Assembly: GCA_913030825.1 (NCBI GenBank)
Contig: CAJWCU010000028.1
Coordinates: 1 to 37,042 of the forward strand
Source: an uncultured Rhodospirillaceae bacterium
Lineage (GTDB): Bacteria; Pseudomonadota; Alphaproteobacteria; Rhodospirillales; Casp-alpha2
Length of the DNA: 37,042 nucleotides
Direction: 5' to 3'
Shown here: piece by piece, positions 1 to 6,240 of the stretch
How the letters are laid out: each line of letters begins with the position of its first letter
Position numbering within the stretch: the stretch's first letter is position 1
Program-made: the position numbers and the translations under genes
Notes under the pieces: generated by a model
What the model was told of the DNA's origin: nothing
Databases searched by the model: none
Seen by the model: the letters and a program-made list of their open reading frames with translations, nothing else

Positions 1-643
1 GGCCGCCGTCTGTCTCGCCGCTACAGTCTGCTACTGGTTATGAGTCCGGAGCCTAGGTCGGCCCCTGTGACCTTTAGGCGGAGAGCCCTGGACATACGTC
101 ACAGGCTCCCCGACCGCATAGGTCAAGGGTGGCTTTTGCGGTCCCACCAGACCGCTAGTGCAGGGGTTTCCACGCCCCAGAGCGATGCGTCTTCGCTCCG
201 AGGCACAGAGTAATCAATTGAAACAAGGTCAGAAAGGGTAATCGCTGAATTGCTGGTCAGTCTTCGCCCCGACGCTTCCACGCAAATCCGCGATAGCCTT
301 TCCTGAAGCACAGATACAATTTTTTGCAGAATTCATTGTAGGTGGGGTCAGGTACCCGAGCCTCCGTTTTCGCCAATCTGAGCGTCACGGGGCATTGGTA
401 TCTGGGCTTTTCTAGCTATCGCAGATCGCAGACTAGGGAATTTGTGTTCATCATTGCAGATTTGGCCAAGCAACTCTGACGACTCGATTAATCAGCATTC
501 AAGACAACGTTCGATAAGGCGCTTAACGACATTAATCATGCTGGTCATCTCCCGCGAATTCATAGGAGGTTCATAGAAAACGGGAAAACAACATTCGACG
601 TCGAACCCACTTGGAAAACCCTCAAACTAGACGAGAGCGCCAT
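1..643. other. Island sequence without a convincing gene
   Basis: No recognisable gene is seen in this stretch downstream of the methyltransferase. One open frame on the minus strand (123..311, GTG start, 62 codons) has no clear ribosome-binding site and no recognisable family. Its sequence is not absurd for a protein (the tail contains ETPALAVWWD), so it could be a small gene or the end of a decayed one. The first 200 bases are GC-richer than the following 450. No tRNA, integrase fragment or attachment repeat is visible, so the left end of the island lies outside the window. Confidence 0.4.
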
Positions 644-1696
644 TCAGTGAACTGAAGAGCCAAATTTTTCGACATGGCGTAAAATTGATTGGCCAATCAC
701 TTCCCCCAAACGCACTGGCACGGCATTGCCGATCAACCGTCCGATACCTTTAAAATTTATTTTTTGGCCTTCCTCAATGAAGGCATATTCGCGGTCAAAG
801 GATTGAAGCATCGCAGCTTCTCGCAACGAAATTGCTCGATCTTGCTGCGGGTGACCAAACCGGCCATTGCCAAAGCCAAAGCATTGGGTCGTAATTGTGG
901 GTGACGGAGTATCCCATTCCATTCTTCCATACACGCCTGGATATGTTTTTCCTGTCGTCCTCTTGTGACACTCCGCGATTAGTTGTTCAGGCCAATCTCG
1001 CCAAGTTCCGCCAGGCTTGGATGCCCTTATCCGCTTCATGTTGATTTCGGTCAGCGTACTAGAGACGTGGAGACGATCAATTGACGCAGCTTCCCCAGCT
1101 GCAAGCGGCGGCAATTCCTCAATTGTCTGGCGTACAGTTTTCCAGTCAACCTTCGAAGGATGCGTTGCCGCGATCGGCATAATCGGTCCAAGGCGTGACG
1201 CCAATAGCACAAGACGGCGGCGAGTCTGCGGAAGGCCATAATGATGGCAGTCGATGTGATCGAACCAGACGTAATAACCTTGCTCAGTAAGAGTCGATTG
1301 GAACTTCTTAAACACCTTGTGATTTTTCAATTGGAAGACGTTTTCCATGGTGACCAACTCAGGTCTTATTTCCATCACCAACCGTCCGAAAGCGTTTAGC
1401 AGTCCCCATTTGTTAGGCTCATAAGTGTAGCGCCCCCGACTGTAGTTCGAAAAAGGCTGGCAAGGTGCACATCCAGCAAGTAGCCGATAAGACCCGCCAC
1501 TCAAATGGTCGGCCACAAAATCTGCTGACAAGGTCATCACATCCTGCTTGAGGAAATCAGACCCATTGTTGGCCTTATACGGGAACTCGCACAAAGGATC
1601 GACGTCCACGCCAAGACCAACGTCAATCCCTGCGTTCAACAACCCCCGTGTCAGCCCACCGGCCCCACAGAACAAATCAATGGCCTTGATGGTCAT
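644..1696 (-). CDS. DNA (cytosine-5-)-methyltransferase
   Basis: Transfers a methyl group from S-adenosylmethionine to C5 of cytosine in a specific DNA sequence. The 350-aa protein has the family motifs in order: motif I AIDLFCGAGG at the N-terminus, motif IV with the catalytic PCQ (AGCAPCQPFSNYSRGR), motif VI ENV, motif VIII QTRRR, a variable target-recognition stretch, and a C-terminal motif IX/X region ending IGNAVP. The frame is open 55 codons further upstream, but those codons cross the divergent promoter region. MTIKAIDLF at 1696 fits the family start and has a GGTGA just upstream, so I chose it. It is divergent from the three-gene operon at 1794, with 97 bp between. No cognate restriction nuclease is recognisable beside it. 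It may be a solitary methylase or the self-protection part of the neighbouring system. Confidence 0.95.
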   Translation of the reverse strand: MTIKAIDLFCGAGGLTRGLLNAGIDVGLGVDVDPLCEFPYKANNGSDFLKQDVMTLSADFVADHLSGGSYRLLAGCAPCQPFSNYSRGRYTYEPNKWGLLNAFGRLVMEIRPELVTMENVFQLKNHKVFKKFQSTLTEQGYYVWFDHIDCHHYGLPQTRRRLVLLASRLGPIMPIAATHPSKVDWKTVRQTIEELPPLAAGEAASIDRLHVSSTLTEINMKRIRASKPGGTWRDWPEQLIAECHKRTTGKTYPGVYGRMEWDTPSPTITTQCFGFGNGRFGHPQQDRAISLREAAMLQSFDREYAFIEEGQKINFKGIGRLIGNAVPVRLGEVIGQSILRHVEKFGSSVH

Positions 1697-1710
1697 GCGC
1701 TCACCGTCAA

Positions 1711-1739
1711 TTGTTGCTTTCTGATCACCATAATAACAT
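1711..1739 (+). promoter_or_regulatory. Candidate promoter of the island operon
   Basis: TTGTTG at 1711-1716 and TAACAT at 1734-1739 are separated by 17 bp, resembling -35 and -10 boxes. They would give an mRNA leader of about 50 nt before the start at 1794. The short sequence GCTCACC occurs twice in this divergent region, near 1700 and 1744. This is seen by eye only. Confidence 0.3.
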
Positions 1740-1793
1740 CTATGCTCACCAGCATCGAGTATCGAATAACCGTTTGATTTTAGTACAGAATGA

Positions 1794-4040
1794 TTGATGT
1801 CCGTTAAAAAACTCTTGCTCGCTGAAGAGACCTCCTCCGACTTTGAGCCGGTGAAGTTCACCGTTGATGCCGCATTGTTACGTGAACTTGGCGAACGCCT
1901 TGTGGGTAGGCCGGAAATTGCGTTGGCAGAACTTGTTAAGAACGCCTACGACGCCGACGGAAGAATTTGTACGATTTCGTTCGAAGATGGTGCGATTGAA
2001 ATTGTCGACGATGGGCATGGCATGTCTGAGGCGGAATTCAAAGAATTCTGGATGCGCGTCGGTACGACCATCAAGCAACGAGAAACAATCTCTCGAAAGT
2101 TGGGGCGCCCTGTCACGGGCTCCAAAGGAGTTGGGAGGCTCGCAGTTCAATTTTTGGCATCTGAACTAGAGCTGACAACGACATCTGATGAAGACACAAC
2201 CCATAAGCTTCAAGCCTTTATCGATTGGGGGAAAGCTCAAGAGGCAACGCACTTAACTGAAGCTACAGCGATGTATCGGGTAACGGCTCGAGATGAGACT
2301 TATGCAAATGGCAGTATCCATGGCACTCGAATTCGGTTGGGGGGTATCCGACAAGCCTGGGGCACCGAGTCTATTCGTGAATTGGCACAAGAGTTATGGT
2401 TTCTCCAGCCTCCTTACAAGCACCCTGGAGGGACGGAAGAATATGGAAAAGAATGCGACCCCAAATCCTTCGCTATTGATCTCATTACCCCTAACGAAAA
2501 TCTCGCTGAAGTATTCGAAGAACAGATGCGAGCGGCTCTCTCGAACTGGCAAGCCCGCATCACTGGTGGCGTAGAAGATGGGCGCGACACAGGAATCGTT
2601 AGGGTAAAAATAGAGTTCAGCGATGGAGAGATATTCGAGGAAACATTCGACATCACCGATAAGGAGACCCCTAGGTCTTGTATTGATGAGATCGACTTTG
2701 AAATTCTTGTATTCAAGCTTTCCGGCCGACAGTCTCACGGAGTATCCGTTCACGAAGCACGAGACTACTTCAAGCAATTTGGCGGCATTCACGTCTACGA
2801 CAGCGGTTTCCGATTGCCGTATTACGGTATCGAGCAGGACTGGCTTGGTATTGAAATGGATCACTCTCACCGGATTCACAAATCGAGCTTGCTTCCCGAC
2901 AAATTACAAGTTTTCCGCGGACTGCAAGACTTGCCAAGTCTCGGGCGCATTTATGGCGTCGTCAACATCAACACTTCTCACGAATCCCAAGTCGCAGAGG
3001 AAGCAAATGGAGACGATCAATATTTAGTCCCGCAAATCTCTCGTGATCGGCTAGTTGACAACGATGCATACCGCCAATTGAAAAGAGCTGTTCGTGTTGC
3101 TGTGGACTACTATGCAACCCGCGTCCGCGTTCGGCGTTATCGCGAATGGGAGATGGATAGGTATTTAATTGAACCGGCTGAACGGATTGATCGCGTTCGC
3201 AAAGTCCTTGTCTCCTATGAACGTGAAATTCCGGACACGGTTTTTACTGAGCTTTCGACCCGTATTGAGGATGCTGTTGCGGCTGAAAAAGCTGCTCAAA
3301 GGTCGAGCGAAGAAGAAAAAGCTCTTCTTGGAGCCCTTGCCTCCGCTGGCATGGCCGCACTTGCACTTGAGCACGAAGTTGGCAAAGAGCTGACAGAGCT
3401 AGACAACCTGATAGAAGACCTTGAAGTGCGAGCGGCAGCCTCAAACTTCGAAGAGCTTGAGGGCATCATTTCAGCTCTAAAGAGCTGGTCTAATCGCGTT
3501 CGGGACACAAGACGCATTTTCTCACCTCTAATGGATGAAGGAAGTCGTAAGACGGCGCAAAGGTACAAGGCAGGCGCAACGATTTCCCAAGTCAAACGAA
3601 ACATGCGATCACTGCTTCGAGATATCGATGTAGATGTAAGGGGCGTTGCGAAAGACCTGCGGTTGCCATCAGCAACTATGGCTGACTGGAACGCAATATT
3701 TCAAAATGTGTTTATCAATGCGGTCAATGCGATGCTCGATGCCACGGATCGAAGGATTGTATGTCAAGGAGGCATTGTTGGGGAGACCGCGTATCTGACA
3801 GTGAGCGATACTGGTGTAGGGATTGATCTCTCTGACGCAGAAGATTTGTTTAAGCCATTCGAACGCCGACTAGAGATTTCAGACGAACGAAAAGCGCTCG
3901 AACTTGGGGGGCGAGGATTGGGACTAACGATCGTCCGTCTCATTGCCGATGCGATAGGTTGCACAACTTCTTTCGTCGAACCTGAGGAGCCATTTGCGAC
4001 CACCTTCAAACTGACTTGGGAGCATGAGAATGCCCATTGA
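1794..4040 (+). CDS. Dual GHKL protein: MORC/HSP90-like ATPase fused to histidine-kinase core
   Basis: This 748-aa protein has two ATP-binding domains of the GHKL superfamily. The N-terminal one shows an N-box (ALAELVKNAYDAD, E46/N50/D53), a DDGHGM box at about 71-76 and a GSKGVGR loop at 109-115, as in HSP90/MORC/MutL ATPases. A middle region follows, then a charged helical stretch with AALALEHEVGKEL, which resembles a DHp H-box with H527 as the likely phosphoacceptor. The C-terminal domain (about 630-740) has a kinase-type N-box (N642), DTGVG (D672) and GGRGLGL (705-711). I infer a sensor in which an MORC-like ATPase controls a histidine kinase whose partner is the next gene. The start is ATGATG with a weak ribosome-binding site; either ATG is possible. 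It overlaps the next gene by 17 bp. GC is lower than in the core genes. Prokaryotic MORC/MutL-like ATPases are known to occur beside methylase and defence genes. Confidence 0.85.
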   Translation: MMSVKKLLLAEETSSDFEPVKFTVDAALLRELGERLVGRPEIALAELVKNAYDADGRICTISFEDGAIEIVDDGHGMSEAEFKEFWMRVGTTIKQRETISRKLGRPVTGSKGVGRLAVQFLASELELTTTSDEDTTHKLQAFIDWGKAQEATHLTEATAMYRVTARDETYANGSIHGTRIRLGGIRQAWGTESIRELAQELWFLQPPYKHPGGTEEYGKECDPKSFAIDLITPNENLAEVFEEQMRAALSNWQARITGGVEDGRDTGIVRVKIEFSDGEIFEETFDITDKETPRSCIDEIDFEILVFKLSGRQSHGVSVHEARDYFKQFGGIHVYDSGFRLPYYGIEQDWLGIEMDHSHRIHKSSLLPDKLQVFRGLQDLPSLGRIYGVVNINTSHESQVAEEANGDDQYLVPQISRDRLVDNDAYRQLKRAVRVAVDYYATRVRVRRYREWEMDRYLIEPAERIDRVRKVLVSYEREIPDTVFTELSTRIEDAVAAEKAAQRSSEEEKALLGALASAGMAALALEHEVGKELTELDNLIEDLEVRAAASNFEELEGIISALKSWSNRVRDTRRIFSPLMDEGSRKTAQRYKAGATISQVKRNMRSLLRDIDVDVRGVAKDLRLPSATMADWNAIFQNVFINAVNAMLDATDRRIVCQGGIVGETAYLTVSDTGVGIDLSDAEDLFKPFERRLEISDERKALELGGRGLGLTIVRLIADAIGCTTSFVEPEEPFATTFKLTWEHENAH

Positions 4041-5274
4041 AAAAATCGTTATCTGTGACGACGAGTTGAAACGCACAGAACGATGGGCAAATCGCCTTGG
4101 AGCGCTTGAAGCTGTGGCATCCCGCTATGAGATTGTCATAGCGACACCCGATGATATTGGCAAAGCATACAAAGAACTTGAGGAGCGCCGAGAGGCCCTA
4201 CGATCTGACCCCAAGATCCAATTCGAAGGGAATCTGTTCGATTCTGCGAATATTCTTGTGTTGGACCAAGACCTGCTGCATCTCGAATCAGAAGGGAAAT
4301 ACGCGGTCGGAAATGAACTCGCATATCTTGCCCGCGTATTTTCGGGTGCGGGCTTTATCACGGTACTAAACGAATTTGGCATAAGGAACTTCGACCTTTC
4401 TCTAGTCGAAGATGCAATGGCCCGAGCAGATATAAATGTCGGCTCAGACCATCTAGATAATCCAGGTCTATGGACAGAGCCTTTTGAGGGGTTTCGCCCG
4501 TGGCACTGGCCTGTAATACCGAAAGCCGCAAGTACTTTTCAGCAACGTGTGAAAGAGGTTCAAGAAGCGCTTGATGAACCTGTATTCGGTTTTTTTGGAT
4601 TCGAGGAGCGTGAGCTTCGACAAATGTCGCGATCCGTTTTGGGGGTAGTTATGGCCGACAAAGGAGACGGCACCCATTCGAGCGGCTTAGAGACAACTTT
4701 TAAGGATTTCGTTCTTTATTCGCATGGCGCTGGCATGAATAGCCGCGACGCAAAAGCAATAGAAACCCGACCAGATATTATTGCCCGAGTTGCTGCTGCG
4801 CGTTCAGCGAAGTGGTTGGAGCGACAAGTCGTTGTCTCGCAGGACGTGCTAGTAGATGCGCCCCATCTCGTGTCGCGCATGCCATTTCTAATGACGGGAG
4901 ATCACAGTAAAATTTCTGACTGGAATCGTACAACTGCGTTTGAGGGCGAACTACTCATTGACGGCTCCATCGAAAAATACCGTTTCGAGAGACCTGACTG
5001 GTTGTATCGGCCAGCCTTTTGGTGGAACAGAATTGAGGATTCTGAAGAAATTCAAGCGCTAATGGAAAAGTGGGACGGAATGCCCTGTCCATTTGTATTT
5101 CGTGAAGACACCTCTTCCTTTGGGACCGAAGAGAATTCATTGGAATTTGTCGCTGAAGTGCCCAGTGTTTTTGATCGTAGGTACGTTTCCAATCCCGACA
5201 CCGATGAATTCGGAGATGACAACCATAGTCCGAAGAAGGTCACGCACACTGACTCGCATCGGCTGGCCATGTGA
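4024..5274 (+). CDS. Receiver-like response-regulator protein with unknown C-terminal domain
   Basis: This 416-aa protein starts with a receiver-like fold: KIVICDDE (acidic pair D12/D13), NILVLDQDL with candidate phosphoacceptor D81, GFITVLNE with T113 at the fourth strand, and PVIPKAA with K167 at the fifth. The loop between the acidic pair and the aspartate is longer than usual, so the domain is not canonical. The remaining 240 residues match nothing I recognise and have no visible helix-turn-helix, so a DNA-binding output is not supported. A GGGAG lies 1 base from the ATG at 4024 but 7 bases from the in-frame ATG at 4030, so the true start may be 4030 (414 aa). It overlaps the kinase gene upstream, and its stop overlaps the next start. 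I infer that it receives phosphate from H527 of the kinase and acts as regulator or effector. Confidence 0.75.
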   Translation: MRMPIEKIVICDDELKRTERWANRLGALEAVASRYEIVIATPDDIGKAYKELEERREALRSDPKIQFEGNLFDSANILVLDQDLLHLESEGKYAVGNELAYLARVFSGAGFITVLNEFGIRNFDLSLVEDAMARADINVGSDHLDNPGLWTEPFEGFRPWHWPVIPKAASTFQQRVKEVQEALDEPVFGFFGFEERELRQMSRSVLGVVMADKGDGTHSSGLETTFKDFVLYSHGAGMNSRDAKAIETRPDIIARVAAARSAKWLERQVVVSQDVLVDAPHLVSRMPFLMTGDHSKISDWNRTTAFEGELLIDGSIEKYRFERPDWLYRPAFWWNRIEDSEEIQALMEKWDGMPCPFVFREDTSSFGTEENSLEFVAEVPSVFDRRYVSNPDTDEFGDDNHSPKKVTHTDSHRLAM

Positions 5275-5936
5275 AACTTCCCATGGCAAATGCTCGGTTA
5301 TCACAGAACCTCCGCGGGGTCATTGAGTGGCTCTACAAAGATGGCGCTAAATGGCGCAGGTCTCTTGATAGCAACGATTGGCGGGCGGATGCAGCTGACA
5401 CAATTTCAGCATTCTACAAGATCTTTCAAAATGAGAACGATTTCCGGCATTTCATGCCCGATGGAAACTGCCAAGAAGTCGAATTCGAGAAAAGGTTGGT
5501 GGTAATAAAACCACCTGTCGATGACAAGTCGGTCTTTCCGACCCTCCATTGTTCTTGGGGTGGCTTAGATACAGACACACCCCGAATAAGGCTGTGCTTG
5601 GGTCTGTTCGTCAGAGTTGGCAAAGGAATGCGCTTCTTCGGCCAACGCTTTGAAGCGCCCCATGGTCCTGGTGATCATAACTACTATCACGCTCAACCGA
5701 TTACCGGATTTAATAAGAACGATGAAATCCTTCAAAGGTTTGCGCCGAGATGGCTGCCCGACAGCTATCCAGCTGTCCCAATACTGTGTGAAGACCCGTT
5801 TGAGCTGACTGCTCTCATGCTTGTCAGCCTATATGGTCAATCCATCCTGAACCAGCTTCGCTTGTTGAGTAGTCGTAATGTGATTGATGGAGGAGCCGCT
5901 AAATCAGTCAATAATTTGATCAAGCGAATTTCCTAA
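5271..5936 (+). CDS. Conserved-looking protein of unknown function, third gene of island operon
   Basis: This 221-aa protein starts with GTG overlapping the TGA of the receiver gene, which is typical of translational coupling. An alternative ATG lies at 5283 but has no ribosome-binding site. No signal peptide or membrane segment is visible. It has a mixed soluble composition and a His/Tyr-rich stretch (GPGDHNYYHAQ, around 139-149) in the middle that could be a functional site. I do not recognise the family, and no PD-(D/E)XK, HNH or PLD nuclease motif can be seen. Position suggests it works with the dual-ATPase kinase and the receiver protein, possibly as output or adaptor. It is the last gene before the island edge. 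Confidence 0.7.
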   Translation: MKLPMANARLSQNLRGVIEWLYKDGAKWRRSLDSNDWRADAADTISAFYKIFQNENDFRHFMPDGNCQEVEFEKRLVVIKPPVDDKSVFPTLHCSWGGLDTDTPRIRLCLGLFVRVGKGMRFFGQRFEAPHGPGDHNYYHAQPITGFNKNDEILQRFAPRWLPDSYPAVPILCEDPFELTALMLVSLYGQSILNQLRLLSSRNVIDGGAAKSVNNLIKRIS

Positions 5937-6201
5937 AAACGACAAGAATCACGAGCATTGCTCCACGCACACGATCGTCCCCAACATTCAAGATTCGCGA
6001 TTGAGAACATCCGGTGCAAAGGCGTATGGCAGCAAGAATAAGGGGTTGGATAACCACTATGCCTGCTGCCATCTGCTGCCATTCCCAACACCCAACGAAG
6101 CCATATCCGGCGCAAAAGGGCGTCGGAGCGGATAGAGTGCGGAGGCTTTAAGTTGTTGAGATTTAGCGGCTTTCGGATTTAGCGATTTTTGCCCTTGAGA
6201 G
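5937..6201. other. Island right-end noncoding segment with direct repeats
   Basis: About 265 bp without a credible gene lie between the last island gene and the broken tRNA. Two copies of GATTTAGCG lie 16 bp apart (6160-6168 and 6176-6184), close to the tRNA break. Short direct repeats of this kind next to an attachment site can be integrase arm or excisionase sites, but nothing proves it here. Confidence 0.4.

Positions 6202-6240
<39 letters not shown>

What the first reader, a model, noticed from the sequence alone, without database searches (positions are those of the whole stretch)
644..5936. Candidate new two-component-like defence locus: methylase plus MORC/HSP90-ATPase-histidine kinase, receiver protein and unknown third protein
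Seen: three genes with 17-bp and 4-bp overlaps, divergent from a complete m5C methylase, in a low-GC island ending at a tRNA. The first protein combines two GHKL ATP sites with an H-box (H527); the second has receiver residues D12/D13, D81, T113 and K167; the third is unknown. Known: MORC/MutL-like ATPases occur with restriction-modification genes, and Detocs shows that kinase/receiver pairs can act in phage defence. Inference: the N-terminal ATPase senses invading or unmethylated DNA and signals by phosphotransfer. The gene composition differs from systems I can name.
Basis: partly seen in the sequence, partly recalled or inferred. Interest (0 to 1): 0.82.

Follow-up and report, generated by a model that had tools for sequence, protein, structure and literature searches.

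The report
Methylase-linked kinase–receiver defence-like gene cassette
A mobile island carries a DNA methylase next to a three-gene signalling cassette (an unusual kinase, a receiver protein and an unnamed third protein); every copy found here, in phages, plasmids and distant bacteria, also lies near a methylase, so it probably recognises unmarked foreign DNA and triggers a response against it.

Summary
The four genes are where stated, in a ~50% GC island that ends at a 39-nt tRNA-Arg(CCG) fragment, not a whole tRNA. The kinase has two intact GHKL sites and an invariant His526-Glu527.

The architecture is not new in kind: a 2021 paper (PMC8011034) described such kinases paired with receiver-like proteins beside C5 methylases. 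This locus fails that paper's two Pfam models. It belongs to a separate, fully supported clade carrying a third gene family (T3) with invariant R, H, H and Q and no sequence or fold match.

The cassette was found at 28 loci, in several phyla, plasmids and phage contigs, with a C5 methylase at 28 of 28 and T3 at all 26 where it could be seen.

Best reading: a methylation-guarded, restriction-like phosphorelay with T3 or the receiver's C-terminal part as effector. Sensing, phosphotransfer and phage defence are inferred; no activity has been shown. Verdict: new variant of a known kind.

The parts
644..1696 (-). C5 cytosine DNA methyltransferase (ORF listed to 1861; likely start Met56 at 1696, inferred)
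   Evidence: PF00145 2.9e-44; best PADLOC model DrmMII 7.1e-89, then Type II MTase 1.5e-80; relatives start at MIDAVDLFCGAGG
1794..4040 (+). Kinase: N-terminal MORC/MutL-like GHKL ATPase (PF13589), linker, His526-Glu527 (counted from ATG 1797), C-terminal HATPase_c
   Evidence: partial match to the N-terminus of BbrUII/HgiDII restriction enzymes 8.6e-25; profile matches solved histidine kinases, best 2.6e-12 over model positions 470-705
4024..5274 (+). Receiver-like protein: REC-like N-terminal part (about residues 1-140, boundary inferred) plus a C-terminal part with no known relative (VDAPHL ... FCEDxSxF)
   Evidence: AlphaFold2 pLDDT 90.2; Foldseek's best hits are receiver domains, best E 4.6e-3, prob 1.00, none below 0.001; D12/D81 invariant
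5271..5936 (+). T3, third protein, signature G-x-R-[FY]-E ... H-x3-H-x-Q; candidate effector
   Evidence: R126, H136, H140, Q142 in 22 of 22 aligned and 4 of 4 added; E128 in 21 of 22 and 4 of 4; no Pfam, PHROGs, PDB-sequence or fold match; pLDDT 88.2
6202..6240 (-). 39-nt exact copy of the 5' half of tRNA-Arg(CCG), taken as the chromosomal edge of the island
   Evidence: 100% match to G000:C33:4269-4307; intact tRNA-Arg(CCG) there, between two ORFs related to tyrosine recombinases
1..6201 (.). Low-GC island, inferred to be mobile (left end lost at the contig end)
   Evidence: the window is G000:C28:1-37042 and begins at the contig's first base

Best explanation
A mobile, methylation-guarded, restriction-like signalling cassette. 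The C5 methylase marks the host's own DNA (family knowledge). The kinase's N-terminal MORC/MutL-type GHKL ATPase, the type of domain found in GHKL restriction enzymes, is inferred to clamp DNA and sense unmodified or abnormal DNA. That state is inferred to drive autophosphorylation at His526 by the C-terminal ATP site and transfer to Asp81 of the receiver. The activated receiver then switches on the effector: either its own C-terminal part or, more likely, T3, whose invariant Arg, two His and Gln with near-invariant Glu look like a catalytic site. Shown here: gene content, intact active-site residues, a REC-like fold prediction, co-occurrence, and copies on phage contigs and plasmids. Inferred: DNA sensing, phosphotransfer, effector role and phage protection.
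For: C5 methylase in 28 of 28 clade loci, lowest score 99 bits. With the same model (at least 60 bits within 8 kb), 1 of 58 loci in the largest group of non-clade kinase/receiver pairs has one, against 21 of 22 and 5 of 6 in two other groups. T3 in 26 of 28 clade loci, the other two being cut by contig ends, and in 0 of 121 non-clade loci. Genome scan: T3 in 4 of 398 genomes (one is the window's own); the receiver in those 4, adjacent, plus one weak hit. The three new loci carry methylase, kinase, receiver, T3 and Vsr and keep all the key residues. Both ATP sites and H526-E527 invariant in 22 of 22. N-terminal domain like BbrUII/HgiDII restriction enzymes. Copies on contigs with phage tail, endolysin or repressor genes, in five of the five viral-collection loci tested out of seven, on two plasmids, and behind DISARM drmA-B-C in L015. 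A GHKL ATPase residue is needed for phage defence by VcSduA (PMC12137116, passages).
Against: No activity has been measured. The receiver lacks the conserved Thr and Lys of receivers, so it may not work by ordinary phosphorylation. The profile alignment to CpxA does not place H526 on CpxA's phospho-His; it is off by roughly a dozen residues or more (which CpxA His is phosphorylated is recalled). T3's catalytic role rests only on conservation. No nuclease domain was recognised in the four proteins. The nearest kinases in the tree mostly lack a methylase. Methylase association could also mean regulation of restriction-modification, as the 2021 authors proposed. Half of the ten neighbour proteins tested for defence models had no match.
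Confidence: 0.55

Rival explanations
1. A two-component regulator of a restriction-modification system: the kinase/receiver pair (with T3 as accessory) controls expression or activity of the methylase and neighbouring R-M genes rather than attacking DNA.
For: This is the reading proposed in PMC8011034 (Discussion read). The kinase-receiver pair is conserved; receivers often regulate (general knowledge).
Against: No DNA-binding domain was recognised in the receiver; in the window the only other gene of this kind seen in the island is the methylase, and Vsr is present in 14 of 28 loci; the cassette is also found on phage contigs and plasmids.
Confidence: 0.2
2. A GHKL restriction complex in which kinase, receiver-like protein and T3 assemble on DNA as one machine; the HK-like half and the receiver act as an ATP-driven conformational switch without phosphotransfer, and T3 or the receiver's C-terminal part cuts DNA.
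For: The receiver lacks the conserved Thr and Lys; the N-terminus resembles BbrUII/HgiDII enzymes; VcSduA is thought to use a GHKL ATPase to control a nuclease (PMC12137116, passages).
Against: H526-E527, the second ATP site, and D12 and D81 are conserved, which is hard to explain without phosphoryl chemistry or metal binding.
Confidence: 0.2
3. A maintenance (addiction) module: the methylase protects the host, and loss of the island lets the kinase/receiver/T3 part kill the cell; phage defence is incidental.
For: Methylase at 28 of 28 loci and copies on mobile elements.
Against: Does not exclude defence; ordinary R-M systems can do both (general knowledge; R-M systems as selfish elements are also noted in PMC8011034).
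Confidence: 0.05

Closest known systems
HEF_HK / Response_reg_2 two-component-like elements (PF19191/PF19192; PMC8011034)
   Same: Soluble kinase with N-terminal HATPase_c_3 and C-terminal HATPase_c, His followed by an acidic residue, adjacent receiver-like gene, C5 methylase and often Vsr beside them
   Different: Window proteins match neither Pfam model at E<=1; in the clade HEF_HK appears in 4 of 22 at best 0.0038 and Response_reg_2 in 1 of 23 at 0.11; separate clade in the kinase tree; receiver lacks the Thr and Lys that the paper reports; carries T3, not described in the sections read (the paper does list unannotated neighbour families OG_20, 16, 24, 8 and 294, which I could not compare)
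BbrUII/HgiDII-type GHKL restriction enzymes (NCBIfam NF050001)
   Same: N-terminal GHKL ATPase domain, 8.6e-25
   Different: Only 176 of 659 model positions match, 87 bits against a cut-off of 550; ours continues into a kinase
VcSduA (GHKL-Shedu, paraMORC3; PMC12137116, passages)
   Same: GHKL ATPase N-terminus; an anti-phage protein
   Different: VcSduA has a DUF4263 nuclease in the same protein; no such Pfam match here
MORC/paraMORC ATPases of R-M systems (PMC2292703, two of four parts read)
   Same: GHKL ATPase in methylase neighbourhoods
   Different: About 70% of the MORC operons there have an SFII helicase, not seen in this island; no kinase half is described in the parts read
Detocs (recalled; not read here)
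   Same: Histidine kinase, receiver and effector used for phage defence (recalled)
   Different: Recalled effector is a nucleosidase; T3 has no match of any kind

Membership tests
HEF_HK/Response_reg_2 system (PMC8011034) | HATPase_c_3 plus HATPase_c in the kinase | tested here: met
   22 of 22 aligned kinases
HEF_HK/Response_reg_2 system (PMC8011034) | HEF_HK domain PF19191 | tested here: not met
   Window none at E<=1; 4 of 22 in the clade at E<=1, best 0.0038. Non-clade kinases did little better: 3 of 46 at E<=0.01 and 0 of 5 of another group at 0.1
HEF_HK/Response_reg_2 system (PMC8011034) | Receiver matching Response_reg_2 PF19192 | tested here: not met
   Window none at E<=1; 1 of 23 at 0.11; profile against one PF19192 carrier, L176, probability 0.3% (a single sequence, weak test)
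HEF_HK/Response_reg_2 system (PMC8011034) | Conserved receiver acidic residues | tested here: met
   D12 and D81 23 of 23, D13 22 of 23; all three in 3 of 3 added
HEF_HK/Response_reg_2 system (PMC8011034) | Conserved receiver Thr and Lys | tested here: not met
   T/S at column 113 in 2 of 23 and 0 of 3 added; K at 167 in 4 of 23 and 0 of 3; no Lys among the invariant or nearly invariant columns
HEF_HK/Response_reg_2 system (PMC8011034) | C5 methylase linkage | tested here: met
   28 of 28 loci
Type II restriction-modification | Methylase | tested here: met
Type II restriction-modification | Cognate restriction nuclease gene | tested here: inconclusive
   The kinase's N-terminus matches the ATPase part of REase models; no nuclease domain was recognised; T3's activity is unknown and the island's left end is missing
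BbrUII/HgiDII | Whole-protein match to NF050001 | tested here: not met
   87 bits against cut-off 550
DISARM | drmA/drmB with the methylase | tested here: inconclusive
   Methylase best model is DrmMII, but none of the other three proteins matches a Drm model; only these four were scanned, and the island's left end is missing
Detocs | Third gene a nucleosidase-type effector (recalled) | tested here: inconclusive
   T3 has no Pfam or PDB-fold match; the defining feature is recalled, not looked up
Histidine kinase/receiver pair | Phosphotransfer His to Asp | not testable with these tools
   Residues present; chemistry untested

The most novel reading that the evidence does not exclude
A restriction-type immune system in which self/non-self reading is uncoupled from attack by a His-Asp phosphorelay: a MORC-like ATPase fused to a histidine kinase reads DNA methylation state and, through an atypical receiver, turns on T3, an enzyme family with a new active site (R-x-E ... 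H-x3-H-x-Q) and possibly a new fold.
Probability: 0.3. Interest if true: 0.8.

Novelty: new variant of a known kind. Interest (0 to 1): 0.56.

Why it matters
Restriction systems normally let the nuclease itself read the methylation mark. A cassette that appears to route the decision through a kinase and receiver would join two-component signalling to restriction and would help explain why GHKL/MORC ATPases sit beside methylases. It would also give a compact bacterial relative for studying how MORC-type ATPases respond to methylation. T3 is a small conserved family with a candidate active site and no known relative, so it is directly testable.

Tried and rejected
Rejected: (1) 'named defence system': PADLOC gives generic methylase models, weak partial hits of the kinase (REase_II 1.5e-10 and 3.2e-7, DpdD 0.0054), one chance-level hit of the receiver (0.051) and none for T3. 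(2) 'Ordinary transcriptional two-component system': no DNA-binding output recognised. (3) T3 as a known nuclease or toxin: no convincing match in Pfam, PHROGs, PDB sequences, PDB folds or viral folds. Its topology (N-terminal helices, then strands, then helices) reminds me of some RNase-type folds, but that is recollection and Foldseek does not support it. (4) Methylase linkage as an artefact of wide flanks: the same model finds it in 1 of 58 loci of another kinase/receiver group. (5) Membership in the published Pfam families: failed. The models are narrow and also miss most other kinase/receiver pairs tested: Response_reg_2 0 of 55 and HEF_HK 3 of 46 at 0.01, and neither in five receivers and five kinases of another group at 0.1. 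So failure shows divergence, not an independent origin.

Led nowhere: close search of genome contigs with the receiver; 60 nearest relatives (only the own genome of 61); plasmids and phages for T3 of L008 and plasmids for the window's T3; viral-contig searches with T3 and receiver alignments (not conserved enough to search); a second class-wide scan whose only positive of 369 was G555, its own centre, already counted, so it added no new locus.
Full report
WHAT IS THERE. The window is the start of contig C28 of an unnamed 3.99-Mb draft genome. Its first ~6.2 kb is at 48-51% GC (1-kb blocks to 6000) against 59-69% beyond. The methylase ORF listed to 1861 overlaps the kinase ORF, but two relatives start at the residue matching Met56, so I place its start near 1696. 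Pfam gives DNA_methylase for the first protein, HATPase_c_3 and HATPase_c for the second, and nothing for the third and fourth. The kinase's N-terminus also matches the N-terminal part of BbrUII/HgiDII restriction enzymes (8.6e-25) and, weakly, MutL (1.5e-6).

ISLAND EDGE. No complete tRNA was found at the island's right edge. Positions 6202-6240(-) are an exact 39-nt copy of the 5' half of tRNA-Arg(CCG), whose intact gene is on contig C33 between two ORFs related to tyrosine recombinases. I infer integration at this tRNA. The left end is lost: bases 2-55 recur at C17:1-54 and at C2:299101-299154 (whether the latter is a contig end was not shown).

RELATIVES. Searches with the receiver and with a four-member kinase alignment, followed by profile searches of ORFs, gave 24 relatives forming one tight group; duplicates L001, L005, L033 and L091 were dropped. 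Three further loci came from searching 398 genomes of the phylum, so with the window there are 28. They include Caulobacter, Mesorhizobium, Methylobacterium, Pseudomonas, Acidobacteria-related, Chloroflexi, Actinobacteria, Nitrospinota and Poribacteria contigs (record titles), two actinobacterial plasmids and seven viral-collection contigs. Of the seven viral-collection loci I tested neighbours of five (L008, L009, L090, L092, L093; ten proteins chosen by me): each had phage genes such as tail, tape-measure, endolysin or repressor.

GENE CONTENT. C5 methylase 28 of 28, lowest 99 bits (in L018 a 126-residue piece); receiver 27 of 28 (L095 ends inside the kinase); T3 26 of 28 (L021 and L095 are cut by contig ends); Vsr 14 of 28, not in the window; a second, adenine-type methylase in 9 of 28, not in the window (NPPY motif seen by eye; annotated Eco57I-type in L006 and L007). 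The C5 model was built from 19 of these loci, so only the other nine are independent finds by that model. The methylase lies upstream, downstream, divergent or convergent. Control: among 121 non-clade loci from the same searches, the largest group of kinase/receiver pairs (58) has a C5 methylase (60 bits or more within 8 kb) in 1, two other groups in 21 of 22 and 5 of 6, and T3 is in none of 121. Methylase linkage is therefore a property of some branches, including this one, and not of the search.

RECIPROCAL TEST. Searching with T3 alone found 4 of 398 genomes, one being the window's own. The receiver search found those 4 plus one weak hit (E 1.3e-4), and T3 and receiver are adjacent in all 4. 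A scan of 369 genomes of another class found only G555, already among the four, with both profiles. In no locus seen did T3 occur without the receiver. The cassette is rare in these samples, about 1% or less.

PHYLOGENY. In a FastTree of 147 kinases the 25 included members of this group are monophyletic with support 1.0 on a branch of 0.87 (L006, L018 and L095 left out as broken or cut). Two carriers of the published Response_reg_2 domain fall elsewhere. The nearest neighbours are kinase/receiver pairs mostly without methylases, at weak support 0.66 for the immediate sister and 0.998 for the larger group. Kinase profiles of this and the other group align end to end (E 1e-114), and the receivers over 249 columns (98.1%), so I take them as one superfamily.

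ACTIVE SITES. Alignments held 22 kinases, 23 receivers and 22 T3 proteins; one search counted columns on them, and one search added L173-L175 (and, for T3, L019). Kinase: first-site E45, N49, D71, G108, K110 and second-site N637, N641, G705, G707, G709 all 22 of 22, D671 and G675 20 of 22; H526 and E527 22 of 22, plus 3 of 3 added full-length kinases. Against a full reading as a histidine kinase, the profile aligns to CpxA (2.6e-12) but the printed alignment does not put H526 on CpxA's phospho-His. Receiver: the model (pLDDT 90.2) has D12/D13 just after strand 1 and D81 at the end of strand 3. Foldseek's best hits are receiver domains, best E 4.6e-3, none below 0.001. N116, invariant (23 of 23 and 3 of 3), follows strand 4 where receivers usually have Thr/Ser; no Lys is invariant. 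Fifteen of the 22 receivers of another methylase-linked group were aligned and do keep an invariant Lys, while the 58-locus group (55 receivers aligned) has no invariant Lys either. T3: R126, H136, H140, Q142 in 26 of 26, E128 in 25 of 26; confident model (88.2) with no fold match at E<=0.001 (a second structural aligner was not available).

CONTEXT. Ten neighbour proteins that I picked by size or appearance were scanned with PADLOC; five matched at 1e-5 and five did not. The matches: in L015 the cassette follows DISARM drmA-drmB-drmC; L020 has a partly Mokosh-like protein; L022 has a Type II REase. With the phage and plasmid copies, this fits a defence setting but is not a measured enrichment.

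LITERATURE. PMC8011034 (2021; abstract, Introduction, Results and Discussion read) described the same kinase architecture, a receiver-like partner, 91.6% linkage across 644 regions and enrichment of C5 methylases and Vsr, and proposed control of R-M systems; it also lists unannotated neighbour families, one of which could be T3. PMC2292703 (first two of four parts) described MORC/paraMORC ATPases in R-M operons. PMC12137116 (passages) shows that a GHKL ATPase residue is needed for phage defence by VcSduA. A figure legend of DefensePredictor (PMC13092281, passages) names HATPase and REC among domains of predicted systems not validated as defensive, so others may have predicted a related system. 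PMC7159879 was seen in passages only and bears on none of this directly. A search for the two Pfam names found two papers, this one and one seen only as a listing. Searches for antiphage kinase/receiver or MORC systems showed capped lists (15 of 1,143; 5 of 5; 5 of 10,108; 4 of 4; 1 of 1; 10 of 40; 2 of 2; 15 of 132), and I saw no other description of this cassette in them. The library is open-access only, so absence from print is not shown. Detocs is recalled; the one paper naming it was not read.

VERDICT. The finding is real and conserved, a new variant of a known kind. The unnamed T3 family and its consistent linkage are the new part. Function is inferred.

Noticed in passing
window 2-55: 54-bp stretch identical at C17:1-54 and C2:299101-299154; perhaps a repeat that broke the assembly and hides the island's left part.
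   Followed up: no
window 59-199: 75% identical to C4:8100-8233 in the same genome; no ORF over 70 aa lies within 1-640.
   Followed up: no
L166/L178, G000:C33 around 4269-4307: Intact tRNA-Arg(CCG) sits between two tyrosine-recombinase-like genes, suggesting repeated integration at this tRNA.
   Followed up: partly
L015:845-12941: C5 methylase, drmA, drmB, drmC, kinase, receiver, T3 and (on the other strand) Vsr in a row: a DISARM and this cassette apparently combined or sharing one methylase.
   Followed up: partly
Second group (e.g. [quoted passage not shown]
   Followed up: partly
Largest group (58 loci, e.g. L025, L053): Large family of HATPase_c_3 kinases each with an adjacent receiver-like protein, methylase in 1 of 58; function unknown.
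   Followed up: no
L006, L007, L017, L018, L019, L020, L022, L024, L094: Clade loci that add an adenine-type methylase to the C5 methylase, so two marks may guard one cassette.
   Followed up: no
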